DNA of 64,000 nt from Arenicola marina. Lineage: Eukaryota > Annelida > Polychaeta > Arenicolidae. The stretch covers positions 35,888,820 through 35,952,819 of the forward strand of contig OZ025261.1 in the NCBI GenBank assembly GCA_964019135.1, written 5' to 3'. Made by a program: the position numbers and the translations under genes. A model generated the notes under the pieces. It saw only the letters and a program-made list of their open reading frames with translations, did no database searches and had not been told where the DNA came from. Shown here piece after piece: positions 23,501-59,700 of the stretch (position 1 is its first letter; every line of letters begins with the position of its first letter).

Positions 23501-26500
23501 AGACATCACACTGTTCATCCATACCCTCCTAGACTACAACACAACATGAAGACATCACGCTGCTCATCCATACCCTCCTTGACTACAACACAACATGAAG
23601 ACATTACGCTGCTCATCCATACCCTCCTAGACTACAACACAACATGAAGACATCACGCTGCTCATCCATACCCTCCTAGACTACAACACAACATGAAGAC
23701 ATTACGCTGCTCATCCATACCCTCCTAGACTACAACACAACATGAGGACATTACGCTGCTCATCCATACCCTCCTAGACTACAACACAACATGAAGACAT
23801 CACGCTGCTCATCCATACCCTCCTAGACTACAACACAACATGAAGACATCACACTGTTCATCCATACCCTCCTAGACTACAACACAACATGAAGACGTCA
23901 CACTGTTCATTCATACCCTCCTAGACTACAACACAACATGAAGACATCACACTGTTCATCCATACCCTCCTAGACTACAACACAACATAAAGACATCGCA
24001 CTGTTCATTCATACCCTCCTAGACTACAACACAACATGAAAACATTACGCTGCTCATCCATACCCTCCTAGATTACAACACAACATGAAGACATCACGCT
24101 GCTCATCCATACCCTCCTAGACTACAACACAACATGAAGACATCGCACTGTTCATTCATACCCTCCTAGACTACAACACAACATGAAGACATCGCACTGT
24201 TCATTCATACCCTCCTAGACTACAACACAACATGAAGACATCGCACTGTTCATTCATACCATCCTAGATTACAACACAACATGAAGACATCACACTGTTC
24301 ATTCATACCCTCCTAGACTACAACACAACATGAAGACATCGCACTGTTCATTCATACCCTCCTAGACTACAACACAACATGAAGACATCGCACTGTTCAT
24401 CCATACCCTCCTAGACTACAACACAACATGAAGACATCACACTGTTCATCCATACCCTCCTAGACTACAACACAACATGAAGACATCGCACTGTTCATTC
24501 ATACCCTCCTAGACTACAACACAACATGAAGACATCACACTGTTCATCCATACCCTCCTAGACTACAACACAACATGAAGACATCACACTGTTCATCCAT
24601 ACCCTCCTAGACTACAACACAACATGAAGACATCACGCTGCTCATCCATACCCTCCTAGACTACAACACAACATGAAGACATTACGCTGCTCATCCATAC
24701 CCTCCTAGACTACAACACAACATGAAGACATTACGCTGCTCATCCATACCCTCCTAGACTACAACACAACATGAAGACATCACGCTGCTCATCCATACCC
24801 TCCTAGACTACAACACAACATGAAGACATCACACTGTTCATCCATACCCTCCTAGACTACAACCCAACATGAAGACATCACACTGTTCATTCATACCCTC
24901 CTAGACTACAACACAACATGAAGACATCACACTGTTCATTCATACCCTCCTAGACTACAACACAACATGAAGACATCACACTGTTCATCCATACCATCCT
25001 AGATTACAACACAACATGAAGACATCACACTGTTCATCCATACCATCCTAGACTACAACACAACATGAAGACATCACACTGTTCATCCATACCATCCTAG
25101 ATTACAACACAACATGAAGACATCACACTGTTCATTCATACCCTCCTAGACTACAACACAGCATGAAGACATCACACTGTTCATCCATACCCTCCTAGAC
25201 TACAACACAACATGAAGACATCACGCTGTTCATCCATACCCTCCTAGACTACAACACAACATGAAGACATAACACTGTTCATCCATACCCTCCTAGACTA
25301 CAACACAACATGAAGACATCACGCTGCTCATCCATACCCTCCTAGACTACAACACAACATGAAGACATCACACTGTTCATCTATACCCTCCTAGACTACA
25401 ACACAACATGAAGACATCACACTGTTCATCCATACCCTCCTAGACTACAACACAACATGAAGACATCACGCTGCTCATCCATACCCTCCTAGACTACAAC
25501 ACAACATGAAGACATCACACTGTTCATCCATACCCTCCTAGACTACAACACAACATGAAGACATCACGCTGCTCATCCATACCCTCCTAGACTACAACAC
25601 AACATGAAGACATCACACTGTTCATCCATACCCTCCTAGACTACAACACAACATGAAGACATCGCACTGTTCATCCATACCATCCTAGACTACAACACAA
25701 CATGAAGACATCGCGCTGTTCATCCATACCCTCCTAGACTACAACACAACATGAAGACATCACGCTGCTCATCCATACCCTCCTAGACTACAACACAACA
25801 TGAAGACATCACACTGTTCGTCCATGCCCTCCTAGACTACAACACAACATGAAGACATCATGCTGCTCATCCATACCCTCCTAGACTACAACACAACATG
25901 AATACATCACACTGTTCATCCATACCCTTCTAGACTACAACACAACATGAAGACATCGCACTGTTCATCCATACCCTCCTGGACTACAACACAACATGAA
26001 GACATCGCACTGTTCATCCATACCCTCCTAGACTATAACACAACATGAATACATCACACTGTTCATCCATACCCTTCTAGACTACAACACAACATGAAGA
26101 CATCGCACTGTTCATCCATACCCTCCTAGACTACAACACAACATGAAGACATCACACTGTTCATCCATACCCTCCTAGACTACAACACAACATGAAGACA
26201 TCACACTGTTCATCCATACCCTCCTAGACTACAACACAACATGAAGACATCACGCTGCTCATCCATACCCTCCTAGACTACAACACAACATGAAGACATC
26301 ACGCTGCTCATCCATACCCTCCTAGACTACAACACAACATGAAGACATCCCACTGTTCATCCATACCCTCCTAGACTACAACATAACATGAAGACATGAC
26401 GCTGCTCATCCATACCCTCCTAGACTACAACACAACATGAAGACATCGCACTGCTCATCCATACCCTCCTAGACTACAACACAACATGAAGACATCACAC

Positions 26501-29500
26501 TGTTCATCCATACCCTTCTAGACTACAACACAACATGAATACATCACACTGTTCATCCATACCCTTCTAGACTACAACACAACATGAAGACATCGCACTG
26601 TTCATCCATACCCTCCTAGACTACAACACAACATGAAGACATCACACTGTTCATCCATACCATCCTAGACTACAACACAACATGAAGACATCACGCTGCT
26701 CATCCATACCCTCCTAGACTACAACACAACATGAAGACATCACACTGTTCATCCATACCCTCCTAGACTACAACACAACATGAAGACATCGCACTGTTCA
26801 TCCATGCCCTCCTAGACTACAACACAACATGAAGACATCGCACTGTTCATCCATACCCTTCTAGACTACAACACAACATGAAGACATCGCACTGTTCATC
26901 CATACCCTCCTAGACTACAACACAACATGAAGACATCACACTGTTCATCCATACCATCCTAGACTACAACACAACATGAAGACATCACGCTGCTCATCCA
27001 TACCCTCCTAGACTACAACACAACATGAAGACATGACGCTGCTCATCCATACCCTCCTAGACTACAACACAACATGAAGACATCGCACTGTTCATTCATA
27101 CCCTCCTGGACTACAACACAACATGAAGACATCGCACTGTTCATCCATACCCTCCTAGACTACAACACAACATGAAGACATCGCACTGTTCATCCATACC
27201 CTCCTAGACTACAACACAACATGAAGACATCACGCTGCTCATCCATACCCTCCTAGACTACAACACAACATGAAGACATCGCACTGCTCATCCATACCCT
27301 CCTAGACTACAACACAACATGAAGACATCGCACTGTTCATCCATACCCTCCTAGACTACAACACAACATGAAGACATCACGCTGCTCATCCATACCCTCC
27401 TAGACTACAACACAACATGAAGACATCGCACTGTTCATCCATACCCTCCTAGACTACAACACAACATGAAGACATCACACTGCTCATCCATACCCTCCTA
27501 GACTACAACACAACATGAAGACATCACACTGTTCATCCATACCCTCCTAGACTACAACACAACATGAAGACATCACGCTGCTCATCCATACCCTCCTAGA
27601 CTACAACACAACATGAAGACATCGCACTGTTCATCCATACCCTCCTAGACTACAACACAACATGAAGACATCACACTGTTCATCCATACCCTCCTAGACT
27701 ACAACACAACATGAAGACATCGCACTGTTCATCCATACCCTCCTAGACTACAACACAACATGAAGACATCGCACTGTTCATCCATACCCTCCTAGACTAC
27801 AACACAACATGAAGACATCGCACTGTTCATCCATACCCTCCTAGACTACAACACAACATGAAGACATCACACTGTTCATCCATACCCTCCTAGACTACAA
27901 CACAACATGAAGACATCGCACTGTTCATCCATACCCTCCTAGACTACAACACAACATGAAGACATCGCACTGTTCATCCATACCCTCCTAGACTACAACA
28001 CAACATGAAGACACCACGCTGCTCATCCATACCCTCCTAGACTACAACACAACATGAAGACATCACACTGTTCATCCATACCTTCCTAGACTACAACACA
28101 ACATGAAGACATCGCACTGTTCATCCATACCCTCCTAGACTACAACACAACATGAAGACATCACACTGTTCATCCATACCCTCCTAGACTACAACACAAC
28201 ATGAAGACATCACACTGTTCATCCATACCCTCCTGGACTACAACACAACATGAAGACACCACGCTGCTCATCCATACCCTCCTAGACTACAACACAACAT
28301 GAAGACATCACACTGTTCATCCATACCCTCCTAGACTACAACACAACATGAAGACATCACACTGTTCATCCATACCCTCCTAGACTACAACACAACATGA
28401 AGACATTACGCTGTTCATCCATACCATCCTAGACTACAACACAACATGAAGACATCACACTGTTCATTCATACCCTCCTAGACTACAACACAACATGAAG
28501 ACATCACACTGTTCATCCATACCCTCCTAGACTACAACACAACATGAAGACATCACGCTGTTCATCCATACCATCCTAGATTACAACACAACATGAAGAC
28601 ATCACACTGTTCATCCATACCCTCCTAGACTACAACACAACATGAAGACATTACGCTGCTCATCCATACCCTCCTAGACTACAACACAACATGAAGACAT
28701 CACGCTGTTCATCCATACCCTCCTAGACTACAACACAACATGAAGACATCGCACTGTTCATCCATACCCTCCTAGACTACAACACAACATGAAGACATCA
28801 CGCTGCTCATCCATACCCTCCTAGACTACAACACAACATGAAGACATCACACTGTTCATTCATACCCTCCTAGACTACAACACAACATGAAAACATCACA
28901 CTGTTCATCCATACCCTCCTAGACTACAACACAACATGAAGACACCACACTGTTCATTCATACCCTCCTAGACTACAACACAACATGAAGACATCACACT
29001 GTTCATCCATACCCTCCTAGACTACAACACAACATGAAGACATCGCACTGTTCATCCATACCCTCCTAGACTACAACACAACATGAAGACATCGCACTGT
29101 TCATCCATACCCTCCTAGACTACAACACAACATAAAGACATCGCACTGTTCATCCATACCCTCCTAGACTACAACACAACATGAAGACATCGCACTGCTC
29201 ATCCATACCCTCCTAGACTACAACACAACATGAAGACATCGCACTGTTCATCCATACCCTCCTAGACTACAACACAACATGAAGACATCACACTGTTCAT
29301 CCATACCCTCCTAGACTACAACACAACATGAAGACATCACGCTGCTCATCCATACCCTCCTAGACTACAACACAACATGAAGACATCACACTGTTCATCC
29401 ATACCCTCCTAGATTACAACACAACATGAAGACATCACGCTGCTCATCCATACCCTCCTAGACTACAACACAACATGAAGACATCACACTGTTCATTCAT

Positions 29501-30450
29501 ACCCTCCTAGACTACAACACAACATGAAGACATCACGCTGCTCATCCATACCCTCCTAGACTACAACACAACATGAAGACATCACGCTGCTCATCCATAC
29601 CCTCCTAGACTACAACACAACATGAAGACATCGCACTGTTCATCCATACCATCCTAGACTACAACACAACATGAAGACATCGCACTGTTCATCCATACCC
29701 TCCTAGGCTACAACACAACATGAAGACGTCACACTGTTCATCCATACCCTCCTAGACTACAACACAACATGAAGACATTACGCTGCTCATCCATACCCTC
29801 CTAGACTACAACACAACATGAAGACATCACGCTGCTCATCCATACCCTCCTAGATTACAACACAACATGAAGACATCACGCTGCTCATCCATACCCTCCT
29901 AAACTACAACACAACATGAAGACATCACACTGTTCATCCATACCCTCCTAGACTACAACACAACATGAAGACACCACGCTGCTCATCCATACCCTCCTAG
30001 ACTACAACACAACATGAAGACATCGCACTGTTCATCCATACCCTCCTAGACTACAACACAACATGAAGACACCACGCTGCTCATCCATACCCTCCTAGAC
30101 TACAACACAACATGAAGACATCGCACTGTTCATTCATACCCTCCTAGACTACAACACAACATGAAGACATCACGCTGCTCATCCATACCCTCCTAGATTA
30201 CAACACAACATGAAGACATCCCACTGCTCATCCATACCCTCCTAGACTACAACACAACATGAAGACATCACACTGTTCATCCATACCCTCCTAGACTACA
30301 ACACAACATGAAGACATCGCACTGTTCATTCATACCCTCCTAGACTACAACACAACATGAAGACATCACACTGTTCATCCATACCCTCCTAGACTACAAC
30401 ACAACATGAAGACATCACACTGTTCATCCATACCCTCCTAGGATACAACA
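11547..30450. repeat. 49-bp minisatellite mega-array, about 385 copies
   Basis: A 49-bp unit containing CATCCATACCCTCCTAGACT and ACAACACAACATGAAGACAT repeats without interruption for about 18.9 kb. Copies differ mainly at a few fixed positions: GCACTG, ACACTG or ACGCTG, then TTCAT or CTCAT, CCATACC or TCATACC, and CCTCC, CATCC or CTTCC. The unit is C- and A-rich on this strand (17 C, 17 A, 10 T and 5 G in the common form). 49 is not a multiple of three and stops occur in all frames, so it is not coding. A few units are shortened by 12 bases. No promoter, splice site or inserted element was noticed inside. Confidence 0.97.
15291..18941. repeat. Higher-order duplicated blocks inside the 49-bp array
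   Basis: Rare variants recur in the same order in successive blocks. ACTCTCCTGGGCTATAACAC occurs at 15291, 17043 and 18942. The 12-base-shortened unit, preceded by a CCTTCCTAGAC variant, has its TTCCTAGAC at 15441, 17193 and 19092. The spacings are 1,752 and then 1,899 bases, which equal 35 x 49 + 37 and 38 x 49 + 37. This shows tandem duplication of blocks of some 36-39 units, the last one longer by three units. Confidence 0.85.
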
Positions 30451-41008: not shown

Positions 41009-41659
41009 ATGGCCGACTCGCGAGGTAACAAAGTCGCGATGCAGCGCCGCCCTAGCGGCCTGCCGGGCCGGGCCATGTCAGTGATCCCCAAGAAGAGCAT
41101 GGCTCCGTCTGCCGGTGGCAAAGCCAGCAACCGAATCCTTATCAACGTGGGCGGGATTCACTACGAGACTTACAAGTCAACCTTGAAAAACATTCCGGAT
41201 TCCCGTCTGGCATGGCTGACGGAGAGCACGTCGCAAAGCAACGCCGATTTCGACCCGCAATCGGGGGAATATTTCTTCGACCGCCACCCTGGAATATTCA
41301 ACATGATCCTGAATTTCTACCGGACGGGTAAGCTGCACGTGCCGACTGACGTCTGCGGGCCGCTGTTTGAGGAGGAGTTGGCGTTCTGGGGTCTGGATGA
41401 GCGGCAGATCGAGCCCTGCTGCTGGACGGCCTACCGGACCCACCGTGAGGCCCAGGAGACCCTCAGGGAGCTGGACGGGGAGGGGGGCAGCCGCTTCTGC
41501 GACAGCGCCGAGGAGGACGAGGGGGCGGAGGAGGCCGACCTCATGGCCAAGCGGTTCGGGCTGGAGGAGGTGCATAGCCCGCGCAAGTCATGCTGGGATA
41601 GGTGGCGCCCCAGACTGTGGACGTTGGTGGATGATCCAAACTCGTCTAAAGGAGCCAAG
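41009..41659 (+). CDS. KCNC: Kv3/Shaw-type voltage-gated K+ channel, exon 1 (T1 domain)
   Basis: Encodes residues 1-217 of a delayed-rectifier potassium channel subunit of the plasma membrane. The ATG is fixed by an in-frame TGA six bases upstream. Residues 1-40 are a basic, flexible N-terminus. Residues 42-140 are the T1 (BTB) tetramerisation domain, with [34 protein letters not shown] and [11 protein letters not shown]. The zinc site HX5CX20CC is intact (H110, C116, C137, C138); it marks non-Shaker (Kv2-4) channels. An acidic linker ([11 protein letters not shown], 168-178) leads to a [10 protein letters not shown] stretch matching the pre-S1 region of KCNC proteins. The exon ends in phase 0 at AAG|GTTAGT, the position I recall for the first coding intron of vertebrate KCNC genes. 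Its G/C-ending codons contrast with the AT-rich surroundings. Shaw/KCNC assignment is strong; which paralogue is not resolved. Confidence 0.95.
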
Positions 41660-41989
41660 GTTAGTCCTAGACTGGTTATTAGGCAAAGGTCACTCCTAGA
41701 AAAAAACTGGTTAATAGGCGAATGGCAATCCTAAAAATAAACTGGTTAATAGGCAAAGGTCAGCTCTAGAAATAAACTGTTAGTAGGCAAAGGTCAGCTC
41801 TAGAAATAAACTGTTAGTAGGCAACGGTCAGTCTTAGACTGGTTAATAGGCAAAGGTCAGTCCTAGACTGGTTAATAGGCAAAGGGCAGTCCTAGACTGG
41901 TTAATAGGCAAAGGTCAGTCCTAGACTGGTTATTAGGCAAAGGTCACCCCTAGAAATAAACTGGTTAATAGAGAAAAGGTCGTGACTAG
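41656..41989 (+). repeat. Minisatellite starting at the exon 1 splice donor (~29-bp and ~36-bp units)
   Basis: About 11 units of type ACTGGTTAATAGGCAAAGG then TCAGTCCTAG; some carry an extra AAATAAAC, making them longer. The first unit begins with the real splice donor itself: AAG|GTTAGTCCTAGACTGG at 41657-41673 is a near-copy of the later AAAGGTCAGTCCTAGACTGG. Thus several downstream units hold donor-like G|GTCAGT sequences (about 41826, 41855 and 41911). In amphioxus, minisatellites overlapping 5' splice boundaries have been reported as 'mirages' (recalled, not checked). Confidence 0.85.
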
Positions 41990-43866
41990 CAAGTAATGAG
42001 TTAATAAGTAAATTTCAGCCAATAACAATTAACGGGTTCAAAGGCAAAGGTTCGGGCGGACATAAGACAAACTAAAGGTCATTTATGGGAATTAAAAGGG
42101 CCATATTAAGCAATTAGGTTTAACCGAGTGAAGCTATGTCAGCCATGAATATGTTTATAATCAAACCGTTGTCAGCCATTAAGGGTGTCTTAAGCAGAAG
42201 TTTATTTCTCCCAGCCATCAATAGATATAGGCTTACTAAGCAAAGCGTTGTTTAAGAAGTGGTGTATGTACAGTTACTAAGCACAGCCCTTAAGGATTAC
42301 AATTCACATATATTGAATTCCTACCTTTAGGTCAAAACATGGAATAGTAGGTTTCTTTGTTTCATATTTGCATCGTCCGCGCGGGTGAGACAAGTGCATC
42401 AGGTGCACAATAAACACCGGCTTTTGACATGTCTGGAAAATAACATTGTTTTCTAACTATAAATGAGGCAGAACGAGCACTCCACGTCGACGAATAATTG
42501 CCTCATACCGTTATTTTAATTTGCTGTTTATTGGAAGAGTCGAAATCGATGTACGCGCTTATCCAGAAGCATTCCAGTTTTGTTTGGTCGTTTCCGGAGA
42601 TGCCCTATCTCAGTGAGGGTGACGTCCGCAAAAAGAGAAAATGGCCTTTCTTTTGTGAATTGCGTGACATAAAGTTGGCATTAATGTGCTCCATAAACAA
42701 GACAAAACTTGGGTAATAACAATAGAACTGCCGCTTAACGTACTGGGTGACATTTATACGCAGATTTTTTCTAGGGAAAATGTCCCTAACATGATATCGT
42801 CTTTGCCAAATTTATTTTCGTTCTGAAAAGATGTAAAGGTCATCTACGTGGATACATCTTGTATAATGACCTTGGCCCCCGCGTGACGTCATCGAGACTT
42901 AGCAGACAAGCCGTTGTGACCCTGGCCACGCGGGGACAGGCTTTTGGCGGAAGTCGGTCACGGCGACCGCCTTTGCAGACATATATATGTATATATATAT
43001 ATATGTATATATACTGTATATGCATGCGCTATATTACCATGAAGAATGCTAAGGCAGCAATACTCCAATCCATGAACGAACAAAGACACCTCTGCTTAAC
43101 CCAAATGAACCCAAACCATTTAACGTGTGCGGCTTGTAGATTAATATGCTCCTCCGCCTTAATCCTACAACACAGAAACGTTGGTGCATAATAGTCCCAG
43201 AACAGACAGTTCTCTCCGTCGACATATTGGCAGACGGCATAAGATTAGCGTAGGATTACGGGCGTGGTTAGATAACAGAGCCGTGACTTACTTACCCAGT
43301 CGTTGGCACTGTTGCCAGTGTGGCACACAATGTGTCACACAATGTGGCACACAATGTGTCACACAATGTCTGCCAAGCTGATTGTGTTAGAGTCGGAATC
43401 ACAATAATATAACAATAGCGCGAGTTAGCGGGGCGTTAGGCAATTTTATTGGCCCGACATCAAGCTGTAGCAGCCCGCCAATTTTCATTATCCGCCCGAG
43501 GCCGCGTAGAGGCCGAGGACTTATCTGTGCTTGTTATTGACTTGCTTGTTTGGTTTCATTTCTGCATGCAATGATCAAATTAAAGCATTTTGGGACTAAC
43601 TGTCCACAAATCGCAAGCCTTTGCACATATAGTTGGCTAGTCGCCTTTTTGATACCATATATCGTTGCCAAGAAAGGTGGCACGTGCAACTTGGCAACTG
43701 GGCAGGCAAGGGGGCCATTTAAAGCTATAACTACACATTTTTGGTGGGTGACGTCATGTTTCATTGTTCTATACAATGTCGCTATGGCAACGATTGTCCA
43801 TCGCATGGACAGCAGGGCGGTTTGGGTCAGAATACAGCATTTTAGCGGCCTTCAGATTTAATGCTA
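41990..43866. other. Intron 1, left part
   Basis: Mostly single-copy intron DNA. Notable are perfect inverted 9-mers CCCCGCGTG (42877-42885) and CACGCGGGG (42927-42935), a TA-rich microsatellite at about 42978-43022, and four 12-base copies of TGTGGCACACAA/TGTGTCACACAA at 43318-43368. Open frames up to about 110 codons have no domain. Confidence 0.5.
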
Positions 43867-46760
43867 TAGGGTCTGTAAGTGACGTCACAGACAGCGCGCG
43901 CTCACCTCTAGAAACAACCATTCTGGGTACAACGCGTCAGCGTGTCCCTATTCCGGAGTTCGCGTAGTCACGCGCACCACCTATCGAGTGGTGGTAGAAC
44001 CCGCCTGAGTTGACTTCCGGTCGGTCTTAACCGCGTAACCGCGGTGTGTAGGGTTGGGGGAGGGTTGGTCTTTAAATGGATGGGGGTATGCCCTGGCGAC
44101 CTAAAAGAGGTGTTAAGGGCTAACTGCACGAGGTTTTATTAACATAAACTGAAAGGGGAAAAACCTACTTTTAGCGTACGTTGCGAGTTCAGCCAAATAT
44201 TAGCTGACAAAAACTGTATTGTAGGTGTATGCCAATTTTGACCGCTGGTTGATTTTATAACTGTTGTATCAGTTGAAGTAGGCCCTACTTTATAATCTTA
44301 AAGCTGCTTATACTGAAATACCTTATCTTGAATTTCTATGCGAATAATGTATTTATATTTGTATTTTGTATTACACAATTTTTAATAAAATAAGACGGAC
44401 AGCTCTAGATCGATCTATATAGCCCTCAACATTTCCGATTTACGAGAAAATATTAACTGATTTGTGGAACAAAATACTTTCTGTGTAAACTATGTAAGTC
44501 GGGGCCCAATAAGTGTATAGTGTGTAGGTATATATCAGACAATATATATGATGGTAATATTTGAGCTTAGAATCACATGCAGAAAAATACAAGAATAAGT
44601 GGGTGACCTTTATTGGGCCTATAATTAATAATTTTATTTGATCATAATTAGGTATTCATTATTTTTATTTTTTTTTGGGGGGGGGGGGGGATATTTTTCT
44701 ATCTTTACTTCTTTACTTCAGTTATATATCTAGGTTCATGGTATAGTTAATTTAAAGTCACTTATAAGTCCTGCAGGACTGGGCGAGGCAATATTTGCAT
44801 TTATGGATTGTGTTTGTATGTTTGTATTCTCGCAAGTGACTATAATAAAAGAGTATTTATCTATTTATGATATATTTCTAATTCAAGTTTGAAGCTTGTC
44901 ATATATCTATAGGAATTTTCCTATAAAATACATGAAATTTACCACACATATGACTTCAGTAGCAGTGGTCCAGATAGTATGCGATAGTATACAGCTACTG
45001 AAACTAAGTTCTATATTGTTGCCTTTTTAATTAACATTTTAATTATCTTTCAGCAAGGGGATATATATATATTGGCAATACAAAGTACTACCATTTTGTA
45101 AAGATACTCGAAGCTTGACATGTTAAGATGGGTTGTTGAGTTTAGGGAACAGAGATTTCTTTCAGTATTTGCTTAATTTAATATGCCTAATTTCCATGGC
45201 CAAATAGACTACATACACTAATATATGTATGGCCTGTATTGTTTTGAGATGCCTGATGGTAATCTATACTGTTGCAGGGAAGATAGTTTTTGACAATGAT
45301 TATATTGGGACACTATTAAAATAATTTTGCCTCGAGATGAATAAAATATATACATTAGGCATTTTATTAAAAATAGTAACGATGGCATTAACTAAAATAT
45401 ATCAACATAGGTTAAATTAATTTAAACTTTAATAACTATTGTGTTGTTAAGTTTAGAGATTGCTAACTGCAGGAAAAGAGATTGCATTCAGTATTTATTT
45501 AATTTTTGACATCCTAGCTATTTTTGTAATAAAATAGCTGGTGATGTCTTCATCTTTATCTTACCAACGATTATAGAGTGTGCAAATAGTACGTAACATG
45601 CTAGTCACCTATGTCTCAGGCTTTTAAAATTTTGTCAAAGTTTTTGTTAAACAATTTATTGTGCTCCCCCTTTCAAGAATTCCTGCACACGCCTCTGCTA
45701 GATAACAAGTAGGGTCCCCTAGATATTAAGTCTGTCCCCCTAGATGATAAGTAGGGCCCCCTAGATAATAAGTTGATCCCCCTAGACAATAAATCAAACC
45801 TCCTAGTAAAAAGTCAATCCCCCTAGCTAATAAGTAGGGCCCAACCCCTAGGTAAAAACTCGGGAAAGTTTTACACTTTCACATATAATTCATTTAGGAA
45901 ATTTCACATAAAATCTTTGATATATTTACTTATAAACTTAAATTGGTTGAAAATATACTTCATTTCCCCATTTAAGTGAGATAAAAATTAATTTCTTGCT
46001 TTTAATTTGATTAATTAAGCTTATATAGACTTAATAAATTATTTATTCCTTAAATTGTCTGCATGTGATTTTAATCCTAATTGCTAATGCTAAATAAATT
46101 TCCCATAGATGCTTTTGTTCAGCCCTTAGTCTTAGAAACTACATACATATATACCCTAACACTGAGCAGTTACCTACCCCCTCATTTAGCCCATGACTCC
46201 ATGAGTAGCCCCAATTTATCGACCCCAGGGCCCAGGCTCCCGTGCACGCACCCCTGATGCCCCCCCCCCCTTTCTTTCCTAAAACGGCGGCCACATCAGA
46301 CCACGTTTTCTTTACTGCGGCCACAACGGGTGACATTTGCCCTTAACTCCCCTCCTCCCCTCCCGAACCACCACACACACACGACCCCCTTGCTACAGGC
46401 ACGAAAACACTACACTGAACGAACCGGAAGTCAACTGTGGTTTAAGTTCCGCCGCTAATCGCCAGGTGGCGTCAACTATCAGAACTGGCGAATACTTTAC
46501 TATGGGCCTCGAACTAGACTCACTGATGTTTGAGATATGAATGCAATGTTAGATTTGAAAACCATATGGAATAAATGTTTGGGGGTGTACCTTCATACTC
46601 GTACTAGTTTTAAATCGCAAGACGCTGGTTTTCTGTGCGTTTCACGCCATTACAAAGAGCTCCCCATGCTTTGTATATGGGGCGGTGAAGCGTCATGTAC
46701 CCAAAACCGGATTCGCTGGAGGTGAACGCACGCTGTCTGTGATGTCACTTACAGACCCTA
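43867..46760. mobile_element. Non-autonomous DNA transposon with long terminal inverted repeats, in the Kv3 intron
   Basis: The left end TAGGGTCTGTAAGTGACGTC (43867 on) and the complement of the right end (46720-46760) match over 41 bases with three differences, all transitions. Weaker similarity continues to about 67 bases (GGGTACA shared at the far end), and a further inverted block GTTGACTTCCGG occurs inside both ends (about 44008 and 46426). The interior, largely AT-rich, holds no long open frame, so no transposase is encoded. Ends of TAGGG type and an imperfect 8-base flank (TAATGCTA against TTGTACTA, five of eight) would fit hAT; a TA duplication around GGG...CCC is equally possible. 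The left end contains a perfect CRE-like TGACGTCA (43880-43887). Confidence 0.75.
45700..45855. repeat. ~22-24-bp tandem repeat inside the inverted-repeat element
   Basis: About seven diverged units of type CCCCCTAGATAATAAGTAGG lie within the AT-rich interior of the 43867-46760 element. Confidence 0.7.
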
Positions 46761-46954
46761 TTGTACTAGTTAACATGACCACCAACTCGTAATAATATCT
46801 GTTGAATATAGTAAACCGTATTGGTTGGTGTCACCGACGAGTTATGTCAGCTCATCTAATCAAAGTTTCCAAGTTGAAGGTACGACGTACAATTATACAC
46901 CACACATGATCCTAATGGCGGTACCACATATCGATATGCAGTGTCAACAAACAA

Positions 46955-47645
46955 AAGCTGTAGTAACGGAAGCCATTGTCAACGAACCATACCTAAAGTA
47001 TCGACAGCCATTGTCTACAAACAATACCTAAAGTATCGACAGCCATTGTCAACAAACAATACCTAAAGTATCGACAGCCATTGTCAACAAACAATACCTA
47101 AAGTATCGACAGCCATTGTCAACAAACAATACTTAAAGTATTGACAGCCATTGTCAACAAACAATACCTAAAATATCGACAGCCATTGTCAACAAATAAT
47201 GCCTAAAGTATCGACAGCCAGTGTCAACAAACAATACCTAACATATCGTCAGCCATTGTCAACAAATAATACCTAAAGTATCGACAGCCATTGTCAACAA
47301 ACATTACCTAAAGTATCGACAGCCAGTGTTACAAACAATACCCAAAATATCGTCAGCCATTGTCAACAAATAATACCTAAAGTATTGACAGCCATTGTCA
47401 ACAAACAATATCTAAAGTATCGACAGTCATTGTCAACAAACAATACTTAAAGTATTGACAGCCATTGTCAACAAACAATACCTAAAATATTGACAGCCAT
47501 TGTCAACAAATAATATCTAAAGTATCGACAGACAGTGTCAACAAACAATACCTATAGTATCGACAGCCATTGTCAACAAACAATACTTAAAGTATTGACA
47601 GTCATTGTCACAAATCATATCTAAAGTATCGATATGTATTGCCAT
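46955..47645. repeat. 35-bp minisatellite upstream of exon 2, about 19 copies
   Basis: Units contain ACAATACCTAAAGTATCGAC and AGCCATTGTCAACAA, at 35-base spacing with scattered substitutions and occasional one-base losses. The array decays toward 47640, with isolated AAAGTATCGA motifs continuing to about 47820. It ends about 350 bases before the splice acceptor of exon 2. Confidence 0.9.
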
Positions 47646-47999
47646 TAAGACAATAAAGTAGTAATAGGCTTTGTGCGCAAACACTAAAGTATCAATCGGT
47701 TTGTCATTAAGATAATAATCTGAAATGCATTAAATATGCACCGTTAACAAACAATGAAGTATCGACATTGATTGCCATTCAGAAAATACGATGACGGTCG
47801 GCTTGCCATAAAGTATCGATATACAACAATAGTTTAAAGTGATCGAACTGGTGTGGACAAGTGTACGATGGGAGGCTTTAAGTGGGTGCTGAGTAGAATA
47901 TACCCGCCATATCTGAGTATAATTTATACGTCGGAATGCGCCACTCGTTAAATTATATTATGTGATTATATAAAAACAATTCCGTTCCATCGCTTGCAG
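47646..47999 (+). other. 3' end of intron 1 with splice acceptor
   Basis: The single-copy intron end closes in TTCCATCGCTTGCAG, giving a canonical AG at 47998-47999. Upstream it holds decayed remnants of the 35-bp array. Confidence 0.7.
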
Positions 48000-49122
48000 G
48001 CGGTCGCCATCATGTCCGTGATGTTCGTCCTCCTGTCCATCACGACCTTTTGCCTGGAGACCCACATCGAGTTCCGGGAGCCGCGCAACGCCTCGGAGCC
48101 GCTGGACTGGAACTGGTCGACTTGGGAGAAGAACACGAAGTCCCAGCCCACGCTGGCCCTGGTCGTCATGGACAGCGTGTCCACCGTCTACTTCACTCTG
48201 GAGTTCGTCATCAGACTCATCCTGTGCCCCAGCAAGAAGGGCTTCTTTCGCGGCGTCCTCAACTGGGTCGACATCCTGTCCATCGTGCCATTCTACGTCG
48301 AGAAAATTGTGATGCTCGTCGAGCCGTCTGTGATCTACTCCATCTACATGCAGGCGTTTAGGGCCATGCGCATGATCAGGATATTCCGCATCTTTAAGCT
48401 GACGAGGCATTTCAGCGGGTTGAAGATCCTGTGGCATTCCATCAAGGCCAGCGCCAAGGAGCTGCTCTTGCTGATTCTCTTCCTCTTCATATCCGTCCTC
48501 ATCTTCGCCTGTTTGATATACTACGCCGAGTCGGTGGAGCAGAATCCGAGGAACAACTTCAAGAATATTCCGCTGGGCTTCTGGTGGGCCGTGGTCACCA
48601 TGACGACGCTAGGGTACGGTGATATGCACCCGCGCACGGGCCTTGGTTACCTGGTTGGCGGCCTGTGCGCCGTGGCCGGGGTGTTGGTCCTGGCCTTACC
48701 CGTCCCTGTCATCGTGAATAACTTCGCCCTCTACTATTCACATGCTCAGGCCAAGCTCAAACTGCCCAAGAAACAAAAACGGATACTGATTGGTGCTCAC
48801 GACGATCTCAAAGCCGACACGACCGCGCCGGAGGAGACCGACTCCGACCTTGGGGAGGAGTCAGTGGCGTCAAGGTCACCGACACCGTCGGAGGAAACTA
48901 GGACATATGGGGATATGACAACCCGAGGGTGTGGGGTCCATGGTCGTATCCCGGAGGAGGAGGCTGGGGAGGGCGATAGAGGCTGTGATACTGGGCGAGC
49001 AGGCGACCAGCGGGCACACTCCCCGAACCCGAGCCTCGCTTCCATCTCCAGCGACCGGAAGACGAGCGATGACAGCGCGCTCGGGAGCTTGGATAGCGGC
49101 AACAAGGCACCGCTCGCCGAAG
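48000..49122 (+). CDS. KCNC: Kv3/Shaw-type voltage-gated K+ channel, exon 2 (S1-S6, C-terminal tail)
   Basis: Continues exon 1 in phase 0 from residue 218. S1 ends in LLSITTFCLETH. S2 carries the YFTLEFVIR charge-transfer region. S3 contains VDILSIVPFYVE. S4 has six basic residues every third position (R338, R341, R344, R347, K350, R353) followed by FKLTRHFSGLKIL. S5, then a short turret, then GFWWAVVTMTTLGYGDMHP with the K+ selectivity filter at about 420-426. S6 has the PVPVIVNNF gating hinge (about 451). A KLPKKQKR basic stretch and a Ser/Asp/Glu-rich tail follow. Compared with vertebrate Kv3 from memory, the turret is about seven residues shorter and the residue after GYGDM is His, not Tyr. 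I end the exon at CCGAAG|GTGGGT (phase 1), so more exons are expected downstream. Read-through would instead stop at 49149-49151 after nine more residues, giving 600 in all. Confidence 0.93.
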
Positions 49123-50099: not shown

Positions 50100-50737
50100 G
50101 TGTGGAAGGTCGTGCTCTAAATGTTGGTCGCCAGGAGAGTTTGGAGGATGGCCGTGCTCGCACTGGTGGTTGCTATGGTAATATACATGAACAGGGCGCT
50201 CGAATGCGGGGAAGCCTGAGATTATATGGGGGAATTGATGCGTTAGGATTGTGGGCTGCTACAGAATTGTGGATAAAAGGACAGATTGTTGGTTGCTAAG
50301 TTAGCGTGGATCGCACTCGAAAAGTAGATTGCTAAAGGAAGCACTCACATTGTTGGTTGCTAAGGAAATCTGGATAAAGAAAGAAATATTGGTGGTTGCA
50401 AAGGCAAGATGGATAAATGAAGCACTCACATTGTTGGTTGCTTAGGAAATCTGTATAAAGGAAACAATCGTATTGTTGGTTGCTAAGGCAATATGAATAA
50501 AGGAAGCACCCATATTGTTGGTTGCTAAGGATGTCTGAATGGAGGAAATAATCCCATAGTCAGTCGCTAAGATGTTATTATTGAAAAATAATCAAATCGC
50601 ATTTCTACGTAAAGAGCGACCGCTTATGTGGTTTCCATGGTAGTATCGTACAAAGAAACACTTCGATTATTGGTTGCTAAGGTAGTGTGACAAACAAATG
50701 ATTGGGGTGGTGGTTCATTAGAAGTTCTGGTAGAAAG
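50100..50737. repeat. Degenerate ~41-bp repeat, possible ancestor of the 26-bp array
   Basis: The motif TTGTTGGTTGCTAAGG recurs (about 50287, 50351, 50392, 50432, 50473 and 50515) at roughly 41-base spacing, followed by an AT-rich part with ATAAAGGAAGCAC. The core TGGTTGCTAAGG resembles TGGTTATTAAGATGGG of the following 26-bp array, and the last diverged copies run straight into it. Confidence 0.65.
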
Positions 50738-53700
50738 ATAGGAACGGGCGGCTGGTTATTAAGATGGGAACGGGCGCCTGGTTATTAAGATGGGAACGGG
50801 CGCCTGGTTATTAAGATGGGAACGGGCGCCTGGTTATTAAGATGGGAACGGGCGGCTGGTTATTAAGATGGGAACAGGCGGCTGGTTATTAAGATGGGAA
50901 CGGGCGGCTGGTTATTAAGATGGGAACGGGCGGCTGGTTATTAAGATGGGAACAGGCGGCTGGTTATTAAGATGGGAACGGGCGGCTGGTTATTAAGATG
51001 GGAACGGGCGGCTGGTTATTAAGATGGGAACGGGCTGCTGGTTATTAAGATGGGAACGGGCGCCTGGTTATTAAGATGGGAACGGGCGGCTGGTTATTAA
51101 GATGGGAACGGGCGGCTGGTTATGAAGATGGGAACGGGCGGCCGCTTATTAAGATGGGAACGGGCGGCTGGTTATTAAGATGGGAACGGGCGCCTGGTTA
51201 TTAAGATGGGAACGGGCGGCTGGTTATTAAGATGGGAACGGGCGGCTGGTTATTAAGATGGGAACGGGCGCCTGGTTATTAAGATGGGAATGGGCGGCTT
51301 GTTATTTAGATGGGAACGGGCACCTGGTTATTAAGATGGAAACGGGCACCTGGTTATTAAGATGGGAACGGGCGGCTGGTTATTAAGATGGGAACGGGCG
51401 GTTGGTTATTAAGATGGGAACGGGCGGCTGGTTATTAAGATGGGAACTGGCGGCTGGTTATTAAGATGGGAACGGGCGGCTGGTTATTAAGTAGGGAACG
51501 GGCGGCTGGTTATTAAGTTGGGAACGGGCGGCTGGTTATGAAGATAGGAACGGGCGGCTGGTTATTAAGATGGGAACGGGCGGCTGGTTATTAAGATGGG
51601 AACGGGCGGCTGGTTATGAAGATGGGAACGGGCGGTTGGTTACTAAGATGGGAACGAGCGGCTGGTTATTAAGATGGGAGCGGGCGGCTGGTTATTAAGA
51701 TGGGAACGGGCGGCTGGTCATTAAGATGGGAACGGGCGGCTGGTTATTAAGATGGGAACGGGCAGCTAGTCATTAAGATGGGAACGGGCGGCTGGTCATT
51801 AAGATGGGAACGGGCGGCTGGTTATCAAGATGGGAACGGGCGGCTGGTTATTAAGATGGAAACGGGCACCTGGTTATTAAGATGGGAACAGGCGGCTGGT
51901 TATTAAGATGGGAACGGGCGGTTGGTTATTAAGATGGGAACGGGCGGCTGGTTATTAAGATGGGAACTGGCGGCTGGTTATTAAGATGGGAACGGGCGGC
52001 TGGTTATTAAGATGGGAACGGGCGGCTGGTTATTAAGATGGGAACGGGAGGCTGGTTATTAAGTAGGGAACGGGCGGCTGGTTATTAAGATGGGAACGGG
52101 CGGCTGGTTATTAAGATGGGAACGGGCGGCTGGTTATTAAGATGGGAACGGGAGGCTGGTTATTAAGATGGGAACGGGCGGCTGGTTATTAAGATGGGAA
52201 CGGGCGGCTGGTTATTAAGATGGGAGCGGGCGGCTGGTTATTAAGTTGGGAACGGGCGGCTGGTTATGAAGATAGGAACGGGCGGCTGGTTATTAAGATG
52301 GGAACGGGCGCCTGGTTATTAAGATGGAAACGGGCACCTGGTTATTAAGATGGGAACAGGCGGCTGGTTATTAAGATGGGAACGGGCGGTTGGTTATTAA
52401 GATGGGAACGGACGGCTGGTTATTAAGATGGGAACTGGCGGCTGATTATTAAGATGGGAACGGGCGGCTGGTTATTAAGTAGGGAACGGGCGGCTGGTTA
52501 TTAAGTTGGGAACGGGCGGCTGGTTATGAAGATAGGAACGGGCGGCTGGTTATTAAGATGGGAACGGGTGGCTGGTTATTAAGATGGGAACGGGTGGCTG
52601 GTTATGAAGATGGGAACGGGCGGTTGGTTATTAAGATGGGAACGAGCGGCTGGTTATTAAGATGGGAACGGGCGGCTGGTTATTAAGATGGGAACGGGCG
52701 GCTGGTTATTAAGATGGGAACGGGCGGCTGGTTATTAAGTAGGGAACGGGCGGCTGGTTATTAAGATGGGAACGGGCGGCTGGTTATTAAGTAGGGAACG
52801 GGCGGCTGGTTATTAAGATGGGAGCGGGCGGCTGGTTATTAAGTTGGGAGCGGGCGGCTGGTTATTAAGTTGGGAACGGGCGGCTGGTTATTAAGATGGG
52901 AACGGGCGGCTGGTTATTAAGGTGGGAACGGGCGGCTGGTTATTAAGATGGGAACGGGCGGCTGGTTATTAAGATGGGAACGGGCGGCTGGTTATTAAGA
53001 TGGGAGCGGGCGGCTGGTTATTAAGTTGGGAACGGGCGGCTGGTTATGAAGATAGGAACGGGCGGCTGGTCATTAAGATGGGAACGGGCGGCTGGTCATT
53101 AAGATGGGAACGGGCGGCTGGTTATTAAGATGGGAACGGGCGCCTGGTTATTAAGATGGGAACGGGCGGCTGGTTATTAAGATGGGAACGGGCGGCTGGT
53201 TATTAAGATGGGAACGGGCGCCTGGTTATTAAGATGGGAATGGGCGGCTTGTTATTAAGATGGGAACGGGCACCTGGTTATTAAGATGGAAACGGGCACC
53301 TGGTTATTAAGATGGGAACGGGCGGCTGGTTATTAAGATGGGAACGGGCGGTTGGTTATTAAGATGGGAACGGGCGGCTGGTTATTAAGATGGGAACTGG
53401 CGGCTGGTTATTAAGATAGGAACGGGCGGCTGGTTATTAAGTAGGGAACGGGCGGCTGGTTATTAAGTTGGGAACGGGCGGCTGGTTATATAGATAGGAA
53501 CGGGCGGCTGGTTATTAAGATGGGAACGGGCGGCTGGTTATTAAGATGGGAACGGGCGGCTGGTTATGAAGATGGGAACGGGCGGTTGGTTACTAAGATG
53601 GGAACGAGCGGCTGGTTATTAAGATGGGAGCGGGCGGCTGGTTATTAAGATGGGAACGGGCGGCTGGTCATTAAGATGGGAACGGGCGGCTGGTTATTAA

Positions 53701-56700
53701 GATGGGAACGGGCAGCTAGTCATTAAGATGGGAACGGGCGGCTGGTCATTAAGATGGGAACGGGCGGCTGGTTATCAAGATGGGAACGGGCGGCTGGTTA
53801 TTAAGATCGGAACGGGCGGCTGGTTATTAAGATGGGAACGGGCGGCTGGTTATTAAGATGGGAACGGGCGGCTGGTTATTAAGTAGGGAACGGGCGGCTG
53901 GTTATTAAGATGGGAACGGGCGGCTGGTTATTAAGTAGGGAACGGGCGGCTGGTTATTAAGATGGGAGCGGGCGGCTGGTTATTAAGTTGGGAGCGGGCG
54001 GCTGGTTATTAAGTTGGGAACGGGCGGCTGGTTATTAAGATGGGAACGGGCGGCTGGTTATTAAGGTGGGAACGGGCGGCTGGTTATTAAGATGGGAACG
54101 GGCGGCTGGTTATTAAGATGGGAACGGGCGGCTGGTTATTAAGATGGGAGCGGGCGGCTGGTTATTAAGTTGGGAACGGGCGGCTGGTTATGAAGATAGG
54201 AACGGGCGGCTGGTCATTAAGATGGGAACGGGCGGCTGGTCATTAAGATGGGAACGGGCGGCTGGTTATTAAGATGGGAACGGGCGCCTGGTTATTAAGA
54301 TGGGAACGGGCGGCTGGTTATTAAGATGGGAACGGGCGGCTGGTTATTAAGATGGGAACGGGCGCCTGGTTATTAAGATGGGAATGGGCGGCTTGTTATT
54401 AAGATGGGAACGGGCACCTGGTTATTAAGATGGAAACGGGCACCTGGTTATTAAGATGGGAACGGGCGGCTGGTTATTAAGATGGGAACGGGCGGTTGGT
54501 TATTAAGATGGGAACGGGCGGCTGGTTATTAAGATGGGAACTGGCGGCTGGTTATTAAGATAGGAACGGGCGGCTGGTTATTAAGTAGGGAACGGGCGGC
54601 TGGTTATTAAGTTGGGAACGGGCGGCTGGTTATGAAGATAGGAACGGGCGGCTGGTTATTAAGATGGGAACGGGCGGCTGGTTATTAAGATGGGAACGGG
54701 CGGCTGGTTATGAAGATGGGAACGGGCGGTTGGTTACTAAGATGGGAACGAGCGGCTGGTTATTAAGATGGGAGCGGGCGGCTGGTTATTAAGATGGGAA
54801 CGGGCGGCTGGTCATTAAGATGGGAACGGGCGGCTGGTTATTAAGATGGGAACGGGCAGCTAGTCATTAAGATGGGAACGGGCGGCTGGTCATTAAGATG
54901 GGAACGGGCGGCTGGTTATCAAGATGGGAACGGGCGGCTGGTTATTAAGATGGAAACGGGCACCTGGTTATTAAGATGGGAACAGGCGGCTGGTTATTAA
55001 GATGGGAACGGGCGGTTGGTTATTAAGATGGGAACGGGCGGCTGGTTATTAAGATGGGAACTGGCGGCTGGTTATTAAGATGGGAACGGGCGGCTGGTTA
55101 TTAAGATGGGAACGGGCGGCTGGTTATTAAGATGGGAACGGGAGGCTGGTTATTAAGTAGGGAACGGGCGGCTGGTTATTAAGATGGGAACGGGCGGCTG
55201 GTTATTAAGATGGGAACGGGCGGCTGGTTATTAAGATGGGAACGGGAGGCTGGTTATTAAGATGGGAACGGGCGGCTGGTTATTAAGATGGGAACGGGCG
55301 GCTGGTTATTAAGATGGGAGCGGGCGGCTGGTTATTAAGTTGGGAACGGGCGGCTGGTTATTAAGATGGGAACGGGCGGCTGGTTATTAAGATGGGAACG
55401 GGCGGCTGGTTATTAAGATGGGAACGGGCGGCTGGTTATGAAGATGGGAACGGGCGGTTGGTTACTAAGATGGGAACGAGCGGCTGGTTATTAAGATGGG
55501 AGCGGGCGGCTGGTTATTAAGATGGGAACGGGCGGCTGGTCATTAAGATGGGAACGGGCGGCTGGTTATTAAGATGGGAACGGGCAGCTAGTCATTAAGA
55601 TGGGAACGGGCGGCTGGTCATTAAGATGGGAACGGGCGGCTGGTTATCAAGATGGGAACGGGCGGCTGGTTATTAAGATGGAAACGGGCACCTGGTTATT
55701 AAGATGGGAACAGGCGGCTGGTTATTAAGATGGGAACGGGCGGTTGGTTATTAAGATGGGAACGGGCGGCTGGTTATTAAGATGGGAACTGGCGGCTGGT
55801 TATTAAGATGGGAACGGGCGGCTGGTTATTAAGATGGGAACGGGCGGCTGGTTATTAAGATGGGAACGGGAGGCTGGTTATTAAGTAGGGAACGGGCGGC
55901 TGGTTATTAAGATGGGAACGGGCGGCTGGTTATTAAGATGGGAACGGGCGGCTGGTTATTAAGATGGGAACGGGAGGCTGGTTATTAAGATGGGAACGGG
56001 CGGCTGGTTATTAAGATGGGAACGGGCGGCTGGTTATTAAGATGGGAGCGGGCGGCTGGTTATTAAGTTGGGAACGGGCGGCTGGTTATTAAGATGGGAA
56101 CGGGCGGCTGGTTATTAAGTAGGGAACGGGCGGCTGGTTATTAAGATGGGAGCGGGCGGCTGGTTATTAAGTTGGGAGCGGGCGGCTGGTTATTAAGTTG
56201 GGAACGGGCGGCTGGTTATTAAGATGGGAACGGGCGGCTGGTTATTAAGGTGGGAACGGGCGGCTGGTTATTAAGATGGGAGCGGGCGGCTGGTTATTAA
56301 GATGGGAACGGGCGGCTGGTTATTAAGATGGGAACGGGCGGCTGGTTATTAAGATGGGAGCGGGCGGCTGGTTATTAAGTTGGGAACGGGCGGCTGGTTA
56401 TGAAGATAGGAACGGGCGGCTGGTCATTAAGATGGGAACGGGCGGCTGGTCATTAAGATGGGAACGGGCGGCTGGTTATTAAGATGGGAACGGGCGCCTG
56501 GTTATTAAGATGGAAACGGGCACCTGGTTATTAAGATGGGAACAGGCGGCTGGTTATTAAGATGGGAACGGGCGCCTGGTTATTAAGATGGGAACGGGCG
56601 GTTGGTTATTAAGATGGGAACGGGCGGCTGGTTATTAAGATGGAAACGGGCACCTGGTTATTAAGATGGGAACAGGCGGCTGGTTATTAAGATGGGAACG

Positions 56701-59700
56701 GGCGGTTGGTTATTAAGATGGGAACGGGCGGCTGGTTATTAAGATGGGAACGGGCGCCTGGTTATTAAGATGGGAACAGGCGGCTGGTTATTAAGATGGG
56801 AACGGGCGGCTGGTTATTAAGATGGGAACAGGCGGCTGGTTATTAAGATGGGAACGGGCGGTTGGTTATTAAGATGGGAACGGGCGGCTGGTTATTAAGA
56901 TGGGAACGGGCGCCTGGTTATTAAGATGGAAACGGGCACCTGGTTATTAAGATGGGAACAGGCGGCTGGTTATTAAGATGGGAACGGGCGGTTGGTTATT
57001 AAGATGGGAACGGGAGGCTGGTTATTAAGATGGGAACGGGCGGCTGGTTATTTAGATGGGAACGGGCGGCTGGTTATTAAGTAGGGAACGGGCGGCTGGT
57101 TATTAAGTTGGGAACGGGCGGCTGGTTATGAAGATAGGAACGGGCGGCTGGTTATTAAGATGGGAACGGGTGGCTGGTTATTAAGATGGGAACGGGTGGC
57201 TGGTTATGAAGATGGGAACGGGCGGTTGGTTATTAAGATGGGAACGAGCGGCTGGTTATTAAGTAGGGAACGGGCGGCTGGTTATTAAGATGGGAACGGG
57301 CGCCTGGTTATTAAGATGGGAACGGGCGGCTGGTTATTAAGATGGGAACTGGCGGCTGGTTATTAAGATGGGAACGGGCGGCTGGTTATTAAGATGGGAA
57401 CGGGCGGCTGGTTATTAAGATGGGAACGGGCGGCTGGTTATTAAGTAGGGAACGGGCGGCTGGTTATTAAGATGGGAACGGGCGGCTGGTTATTAAGTAG
57501 GGAACGGGCGGCTGGTTATTAAGATGGGAGCGGGCGGCTGGTTATTAAGTTGGGAGCGGGCGGCTGGTTATTAAGTTGGGAACGGGCGGCTGGTTATTAA
57601 GATGGGAACGGGCGGCTGGTTATTAAGGTGGGAACGGGCGGCTGGTTATTAAGATGGGAGCGGGCGGCTGGTTATTAAGATGGGAACGGGCGGCTGGTTA
57701 TTAAGATGGGAACGGGCGGCTGGTTATTAAGATGGGAGCGGGCGGCTGGTTATTAAGTTGGGAACGGGCGGCTGGTTATGAAGATAGGAACGGGCGGCTG
57801 GTCATTAAGATGGGAACGGGCGGCTGGTCATTAAGATGGGAACGGGCGGCTGTTTATTAAGATGGAAACGGGCACCTGGTTATTAAGATGGGAACAGGCG
57901 GCTGGTTATTAAGATGGGAACGGGCGCCTGGTTATTAAGATGGGAACGGGCGGTTGGTTATTAAGATGGGAACGGGCGGCTGGTTATTAAGATGGAAACG
58001 GGCACCTGGTTATTAAGATGGGAACAGGCGGCTGGTTATTAAGATGGGAACGGGCGGTTGGTTATTAAGATGGGAACGGGCGGCTGGTTATTAAGATGGG
58101 AACGGGCGCCTGGTTATTAAGATGGGAACAGGCGGCTGGTTATTAAGATGGGAACGGGCGGCTGGTTATTAAGATGGGAACAGGCGGCTGGTTATTAAGA
58201 TGGGAACGGGCGGTTGGTTATTAAGATGGGAACGGGCGGCTGGTTATTAAGATGGGAACGGGCGCCTGGTTATTAAGATGGAAACGGGCACCTGGTTATT
58301 AAGATGGGAACAGGCGGCTGGTTATTAAGATGGGAACGGGCGGTTGGTTATTAAGATGGGAACGGGAGGCTGGTTATTAAGATGGGAACTGGCGGCTGTT
58401 TATTTAGATGGGAACGGGCGGCTGGTTATTAAGTAGGGAACGGGCGGCTGGTTATTAAGTTGGGAACGGGCGGCTGGTTATGAAGATAGGAACGGGCGGC
58501 TGGTTATTAAGATGGGAACGGGTGGCTGGTTATTAAGATGGGAACGGGTGGCTGGTTATGAAGATGGGAACGGGCGGTTGGTTATTAAGATGGGAACGAG
58601 CGGCTGGTTATTAAGATGGGAGCGGGCGGCTGGTTATTAAGATGGGAACGGGCGGCTGGTCATTAAGATGGGAACAGGCGGCTGGTTATTAAGATGGGAA
58701 CGGGCAGCTAGTCATTAAGATGGGAACGGGCGGCTGGTCATTAAGATGGGAACGGGCGGCTGGTTATCAAGATGGGAACGGGCGGCTGGTCATTAAGATG
58801 GAAACAGGCGGCTGGTGATTAAGATGGGAACGGGCGGCTGGTTATTAGGATGTGAACTGGCGGATGGTTATTAAGATGGGAACGGGCGGCTGGTTATAAA
58901 GATGAGAACGGGCGGCTGGTTATTAAGATGGGAACAAGCGGCTGGTGATTAAGATGGGAACGGGCGGCTGGTTATTAAGATGTGAACTGGCGTCTGGTTA
59001 TTAAGATGGGAACGGGCGGCTGGTTATTAAGATGGGAACGGGCGGCTGGTTATTAAGATGGGAACGGGCGGCTGGTGATTAAGATGGGAGCGGGCGGCTG
59101 GTTATTAAGATGGGAACGGGCGGCTGGTTATTAAGTTGGGAACGGGCGGCTGGTTATTAAGATGGGAGCGGGCGGCTGGTTATTAAGATGGGAACTGGCG
59201 GCTGGTTATTAAGATGGGAGCGGGCGGCTGGTTATTAAGATGGGAACGGGCGGCTGGTTATTAAGTTGGGAACGGGCGGCTGGTTATTAAGATAGGAACG
59301 GGCGGCTGGTTATTAAGTTGGGAACGGGCGGCTGGTTATTAAGATGGGAACGGGCGACTTGTTATAAAGATGGGAGCGCGCGGCTGGTTATTAAGATGCG
59401 AACGGGCGGCTGGCTATTAAGATGGGAACGGGCGCCTGGTTATTAAGATGTGAACTGACGGCTGGTTATTAAGATGGGAACGGGCGGCTGGTGATTAAGA
59501 TGGGAACGGGCGGCTGGTTATTAAGATGGGAACGGGCGGCTGGTCATTAAGATGGGAACGGGCGGCTGGTTATTAAGATGGGAACGGGCGGCTGGTTATT
59601 AAGATGTGAACTCGCGTCTGGTTATTAAGATGCGAACGGGCGGCTGGTTATTAACATGGGAACGGGCGGCTGGTTATTAAGATGGGAACGGGCGGCTGGT

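What the first reader, a model, noticed from the sequence alone, without database searches (positions are those of the whole stretch)
41656..41989. Minisatellite grown from a 5' splice site ('mirage'-like) in the Kv3 gene
The true donor AAG|GTTAGTCCTAGACTGG is the first unit of the array, and later units repeat the same region as AAAGGTCAGTCCTAGACTGG. The intron therefore starts with a series of decoy donors. I recall such exon-intron-boundary minisatellites reported from amphioxus under the name mirages; if so, this supports the organism guess and adds an ion-channel example.
Basis: partly seen in the sequence, partly recalled or inferred. Interest (0 to 1): 0.7.

Follow-up and report, generated by a model that had tools for sequence, protein, structure and literature searches.

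The report
Splice-site minisatellite in an annelid Kv3
The first coding intron of a potassium-channel gene in a segmented worm opens with about ten tandem copies of its own splice signal, and a sample of other genes in the same genome shows this is common there, so a pattern so far described from amphioxus is neither amphioxus-specific nor rare.

Summary
Confirmed: the intron after the T1 exon of a Kv3/Shaw gene begins with a minisatellite (ten clear units, 41660-41978; decayed to about 42051). The real donor AAG|GTTAGT opens unit 1, which matches unit 9 at 28 of 29 bases, so the likeness is homology. Five later copies score like ordinary donors of this genome, four of them no lower than the real one; joining at any later unit breaks the reading frame.

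Not confirmed: amphioxus. The mitochondrial contig has the annelid gene order.

Wider: of 87 donors sampled from Kv, myosin, kinesin and CCT genes of this genome, 14 lie in tandem arrays that contain the donor, and 11 of these repeat 13-58 nt of exon: 'mirage' anatomy. Repeat coverage at donors (11/87) is not above the intronic background (about a quarter), so no donor-specific mechanism is needed. Exon 3' ends are repeated about three times as often as 5' ends (17 against 6 of 136 exons, p 0.03; suggestive).

Best reading: general tandem duplication runs over exon borders; an old donor survives as the first-transcribed copy, and later copies are near-neutral decoys. Which copy is used is untested: no transcripts were available.

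The parts
41009..41659 (+). Kv3 exon 1 coding part (T1/BTB domain), ending GCCAAG at the donor
   Evidence: Pfam BTB_2 E 4.9e-29; KCNC1 best in PDB search
41657..41665 (+). True donor AAG|GTTAGT, first bases of unit 1
   Evidence: collinear, phase-0 join; score 9.7, 59th percentile of 86 other donors of this genome; same intron position in 4 of 5 Kv relatives
41660..41978 (+). Minisatellite, ten units of 29 or 34-36 nt starting at the donor
41979..42051 (+). Decayed further units of the same array
   Evidence: unit B score 38 against shuffle maximum 26, 0 of 200
41759..41919 (+). Stretch holding the five donor-grade decoys, intron side starting at 41759, 41793, 41827, 41856 and 41914
   Evidence: scores 9.8, 9.8, 8.2, 11.0, 11.0; each join gives a first stop at codon 242
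47985..47999 (+). Acceptor TTGCAG| of the same intron
   Evidence: sequence; join restores an open frame of 600 aa
48000..49148 (+). Kv3 exon 2 coding part (S1 to pore and C-terminus); a possible further donor AAG|GTGGGT lies near 49122, so the C-terminus is provisional
   Evidence: Ion_trans E 3.3e-46; KCNC1 best

Best explanation
It is a border minisatellite ('mirage' anatomy) in an annelid. This genome makes tandem duplications at high density outside coding sequence, and some run across exon-intron borders. Here duplication took in an old Kv3 donor (with at most a few exon bases) and spread into the intron, leaving the real donor as the first copy beside an intact exon. Shown: homology of unit 1 to the rest, age of the intron position, donor-grade decoys, loss of frame at every decoy, the same anatomy at other donors of the genome. 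Inferred: the spliceosome commits to the first-transcribed copy next to exon 1; any transcript made from a decoy is truncated and probably degraded; the decoys evolve nearly neutrally.
For: Unit 1 = unit 9 at 28/29 bases. Same intron position in L007, L008, L009, L010; array-free relatives L007 and L010 read GCCAAG|GTTAGTC and GCCAAG|GTCAGTC, close to the unit core GCAAAG|GTCAGTC. 14 of 87 donors lie in tandem copies that contain the donor, 11 with 13-58 nt of exon. Coverage 11/87 at the donor and about a quarter from +75 on; background 472/1959 and 314/1484 positions. All ten later units give a first stop at codon 234-246. Decoy donor bases diverge about like the rest of the unit: 0.088 against 0.121 over 12 arrays, 1167 of 5000 random windows as low.
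Against: No transcript shows which copy is used. Only 3-6 exon bases are shared, so a seed lying wholly in the intron cannot be excluded. No allele or relative without the array was available. The donor set was chosen by consensus and frame, not by transcripts; exons of one gene are not independent.
Confidence: 0.7

Rival explanations
1. Donor-specific origin: something about 5' splice sites or the 5' ends of introns (transcription-linked breaks, R-loops, bound U1) makes tandem duplications start there.
For: Arrays are commoner at donors than acceptors: 14/87 against 2/83 assigned sites (Fisher 0.003); 17 against 6 of 136 exon ends without assigning sites (p 0.027).
Against: Coverage at donors is below, not above, other intronic positions; first array bases near 87 donors show no clear peak at the donor (4 of 33 within -6..+5). 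Depletion near acceptors explains the asymmetry as well.
Confidence: 0.15
2. Coincidence of place: a purely intronic minisatellite happens to abut the donor, and the donor bases were taken into the array only by later turnover; nothing grew from the splice site.
For: Arrays are so dense here that some must abut donors; at most 3-6 exon bases are shared.
Against: The true donor is in register with the array and 28/29 identical to unit 9; array-free relatives have nearly the same border bases as the unit.
Confidence: 0.25
3. Functional decoy array: the row of strong U1-binding sites is kept to regulate Kv3 splicing or to guard a long intron against premature polyadenylation.
For: Five donor-grade copies in the array against one site of that grade in the other 5.9 kb of the intron.
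Against: In this array the donor 9-mer is less conserved than other parts of the unit (0.247 against 0.145) and 2 of 9 copies have lost GT; no general conservation of decoys; three nearest relatives L007, L009, L010 lack an array at the donor.
Confidence: 0.05
4. One reading: an amphioxus mirage.
For: The anatomy matches (PMC3087553 passages).
Against: Annelid mitochondrial gene order.
Confidence: 0.02

Closest known systems
'Mirage' border minisatellites of amphioxus (Adh3; globins BflGb6 and BflGb9; compared with PGBD5 and TnC)
   Same: Tandem copies spanning a splice site, with AG/GT signals in many units; units of 10-72 bp in Adh3 cover the 29-36 nt seen here; true site beside an intact exon (PMC3087553 and PMC3902484, passages).
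   Different: Annelid, not cephalochordate; the Kv3 unit holds at most 3-6 exon bases (other arrays of this genome hold 13-58); no RT-PCR or allele data here.
Minisatellites and duplicated exons in earthworm metallothionein genes (Lumbricus rubellus, Eisenia fetida)
   Same: Annelid genes with tandem arrays in intron 1, and exon copies absent from the transcript (PMC12783039, passages).
   Different: In the passages seen the arrays are not described as containing the donor.
Intron gain by tandem duplication of AG|GT sites (Rogers' idea, as told in PMC3087553; potato RdRp, PMC4974935, search listing only)
   Same: Tandem copies of border sequence with AG|GT are the raw material that the model needs.
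   Different: No new intron here: the intron position is shared with 4 of 5 relatives.

Membership tests
Mirage minisatellite (features as told in PMC3087553) | Tandem repeat spans an exon-intron boundary | tested here: inconclusive
   Kv3: donor bases inside unit 1, but only 3-6 exon bases shared. Met in 11 other donors of the genome with 13-58 exon bases.
Mirage minisatellite (features as told in PMC3087553) | Many units carry AG/GT splice signals | tested here: met
   GT kept in 7 of 9 later copies; five of donor grade.
Mirage minisatellite (features as told in PMC3087553) | Unit length in the reported range (10-72 bp Adh3, 150-160 bp globins) | tested here: met
   29 and 34-36 nt.
Mirage minisatellite (features as told in PMC3087553) | Regular splicing is not disturbed | not testable with these tools
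   No transcripts; only the first copy gives an intact frame.
Mirage minisatellite (features as told in PMC3087553) | Length varies between haplotypes or cells | not testable with these tools
   One haplotype; one copy found in the assembly.
Mirage minisatellite (features as told in PMC3087553) | Cephalochordate host (where described, not part of the definition) | tested here: not met
   Annelid mitochondrial gene order.
Kv3/Shaw potassium channel | T1 and channel domains closest to KCNC | tested here: met
   KCNC1 first among solved structures for both exons.

The most novel reading that the evidence does not exclude
In this annelid, border minisatellites are a common part of gene structure (about one donor in six of those sampled). 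They persist mainly at donors because a true donor is transcribed before its decoys, whereas at an acceptor the decoys would come first and be used: a natural, genome-wide experiment on first-come splice-site choice, and a standing supply of AG|GT copies for intron gain.
Probability: 0.3. Interest if true: 0.68.

Novelty: new member of a known kind. Interest (0 to 1): 0.5.

Why it matters
[quoted passage not shown] Finding the anatomy at 14 of 87 sampled donors of an annelid suggests that it follows from a high rate of tandem duplication rather than from one lineage, and offers many natural tests of how a spliceosome picks one donor out of a row of equals.

Tried and rejected
Amphioxus: rejected on mitochondrial gene order. 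GFP family as an amphioxus marker: no match, but the tool says nothing rang anywhere, so it carries no weight.

Decoy donors specially conserved: a first count gave 33/684 mismatches in the donor 9-mer against 308/2204 outside (p 4e-12). The copies had been anchored on the donor without gaps, which favours the donor. With other anchors and gapped alignment it was 0.170 against 0.169, but there the L047 walk had run into an unrelated C-rich repeat. Without L047, 0.088 against 0.121 over 12 arrays, 9 of 12 arrays below their own mean, 1167 of 5000 random windows as low; without L006 too, 746 of 5000. Not established.

Donors as preferred array sites: not supported (8/53 donors against 472/1959 and 314/1484 control positions at 24 of 30 matches; profile). 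Peak of array edges at donors: 4 of 33 first array bases lie in -6..+5, not clearly raised.

Donor-acceptor asymmetry: kept as suggestive. The assigned-site count (14/87 against 2/83, p 0.003) flatters it: acceptors were assigned automatically for 83 of 107 exons, and the assignment-free test finds L056 and L099, which that count lacks. Assignment-free: 13 against 4 of 107 (p 0.04; L018 among the 4 is a simple coding repeat), and 17 against 6 of 136 with 29 more exons in loci already held (p 0.027; C14:6743157 among the 17 is doubtful). Any repeat 30-240 nt inside the intron: 30/87 donor side, 18/83 acceptor side, p 0.09.

Rows dropped before counts: of 68 Kv, myosin and kinesin exons 15 had no clear donor (53 used); of 39 CCT exons 5 (34 used). 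Five kinesin loci on contigs C390, C504 and C536 were left out as probably foreign. L001-L005 repeat the window's own array. Of the 14 donors in arrays, L099 only just passes the threshold. The rule gives 15 of 87, with L021 and L076 in and L101 out.

Literature: ten searches, whose listings show no paper on donor-containing arrays in an annelid; the library holds open-licence papers only. The original Adh paper is not held and was not seen.

Full report
What was claimed. A minisatellite at 41656-41989 whose first unit is the true donor of a Kv3 gene, read as an amphioxus 'mirage'.

The gene. Exon 1 (41009-41659) is a Kv T1 exon and exon 2 (from 48000) carries S1 to the pore; both match KCNC1 best among solved structures. 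The last residue of exon 1 and the first of exon 2 fall on adjacent KCNC1 positions 190 and 191, so the join AAG|GTTAGT ... TTGCAG|GCGGTC is collinear and in phase 0, with a spliced frame of 600 aa if exon 2 is the last. Of the five nearest Kv-family exons in the same genome, four (L007, L008, L009, L010; not L011) have an intron at the same place by protein alignment read by eye; L007 and L010 read GCCAAG|GTTAGTC and GCCAAG|GTCAGTC and show no array there. The donor position is therefore old and the array newer.

The array. Ten units stand in the register of the donor, 41660-41978, with decayed units to about 42051. Units come in two lengths, 29 nt (1, 6-9) and 34-36 nt (2-5, 10). Unit 1 differs from unit 9 by one base of 29. 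Units 1-2 and 9-10 also resemble each other as pairs: both first members have TTATT, both second members start GTCAC (sequence). So the likeness of the donor unit to later ones is homology. On the exon side the likeness stops within 3-6 bases. The motif was found at no other place in the 867 Mb genome with up to two mismatches (a lower bound).

Decoys. Scored with weights from 86 other donors of this genome, the true donor gets 9.7 (59th percentile); the copies at 41759, 41793, 41827, 41856 and 41914 get 9.8, 9.8, 8.2, 11.0 and 11.0; 42100-47990 of the same intron holds one site of that grade. Joining exon 1 at any of the ten later units tested gives a first stop at codon 234-246. Hence only the first copy can make the channel; that the cell chooses it is inferred, not shown.

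The organism. Contig C762 (15,942 bases) holds COX1 (Pfam). Reading the translations around it by eye gives ND3-ND2-COX1-COX2-ATP8-COX3-ND6-CYTB-ATP6-ND5 on one strand. A paper on annelid mitochondria (PMC2639372, passages) gives these marks for annelids: nad6/cob right after cox3, atp6 between cob and nad5, nad3 between nad1 and nad2. The amphioxus order is different (recalled). A muscle myosin exon (L023) is closest in the PDB to 3i5f, then 1dfk and kin (squid and scallop by recall), and its gene shows four copies each of two exon types.

How common is it here? Exons of Kv, myosin, kinesin and CCT genes were fetched and donors set by frame and consensus: 87 donors from 107 exons. Fourteen of 87, the finding included, lie in a tandem copy that contains the donor: 8 of 53 in the first set and 6 of 34 in the CCT set (15 of 87 by the rule). 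In eleven the unit holds 13-58 nt of exon end, for example L012 (61 nt unit), L046 (about 100), L060 (71-73) and L066 (about 92). L099 only just passes. Further cases outside the sample are visible in loci held (L039; C7:32813243 and C12:34187954).

Is the donor special? Coverage by tandem repeats is 0/85 at -90, 11/87 at the donor, 18/87 at +30 and about a quarter from +75 on; control positions in the same loci give 472/1959 and 314/1484. Donors are not enriched. A general duplication pressure, trimmed by coding constraint, is enough. The acceptor side is emptier: 2 of 83 assigned acceptors in arrays; coverage 3/83 at -30, 8/83 at -105, 12/63 at -330. Without assigning splice sites, exon 3' ends are copied downstream in 17 and 5' ends upstream in 6 of 136 exons (Fisher 0.027). 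Exons of one gene are not independent, so this is suggestive. A simple account is that decoys after a donor come late and do little harm, whereas decoys before an acceptor come first.

Neutral decoys. A first count suggested strong conservation of decoy donors; it was largely an anchoring artefact. A fairer test leaves a small, non-significant deficit of changes (0.088 against 0.121; 1167 of 5000 random windows as low). In the Kv3 array the donor 9-mer is, if anything, less conserved than the rest.

Known relatives. Border minisatellites were named mirages in amphioxus Adh3 and described in globins, at 5' and 3' borders, with regular splicing by RT-PCR (PMC3087553, passages), and likened to repeats in PGBD5 and TnC (PMC3902484, passage). 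Earthworm metallothionein genes have minisatellites in intron 1 and duplicated fourth-exon copies absent from the transcript (PMC12783039, passages). The listings show no report of donor-containing arrays in annelids.

Verdict. A real and well described feature; a new member of a known kind in another phylum; common in this genome and not tied to Kv3. The prevalence and the tilt towards donors are the parts worth following.

Noticed in passing
L008 (C11:12953432-12956899), from 89 nt after the exon match to the end of the locus: A Kv relative with the same intron has another, unrelated array (54 nt unit, 26 copies up to the end of the locus) holding TTG|GTAAGG, a donor-like motif, in each half unit.
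   Followed up: partly
L099, L056, L075, L011: Acceptor-side arrays: L099 (34 nt unit reaching 27 nt into the matched exon), L056 and L075; L011 has a 73 nt unit, 5 copies, with TTGCAG upstream of a Kv exon.
   Followed up: partly
L021 (C4:41883560-41886769): A myosin exon is followed, from the fifth intron base, by a 17 nt unit repeated 88 times to the end of the locus.
   Followed up: no
window 11547-30450 and 50735-64000: Two very long satellites, 49 nt x about 387 and 26 nt x about 510 up to the window end, flank the Kv3 gene.
   Followed up: no
window 46942-47632: A 35 nt x 20 array near the 3' end of the same intron, ending about 370 nt before the acceptor.
   Followed up: no
G000 contigs C390, C504, C536 (L050, L051, L053, L054, L059): Kinesin matches with several in-frame TAG/TAA on small contigs: perhaps foreign DNA of an organism with reassigned stops, such as a ciliate.
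   Followed up: no
G000:C4:367768-384767: One muscle myosin gene has four copies of two different exons, as in mutually exclusive splicing.
   Followed up: no
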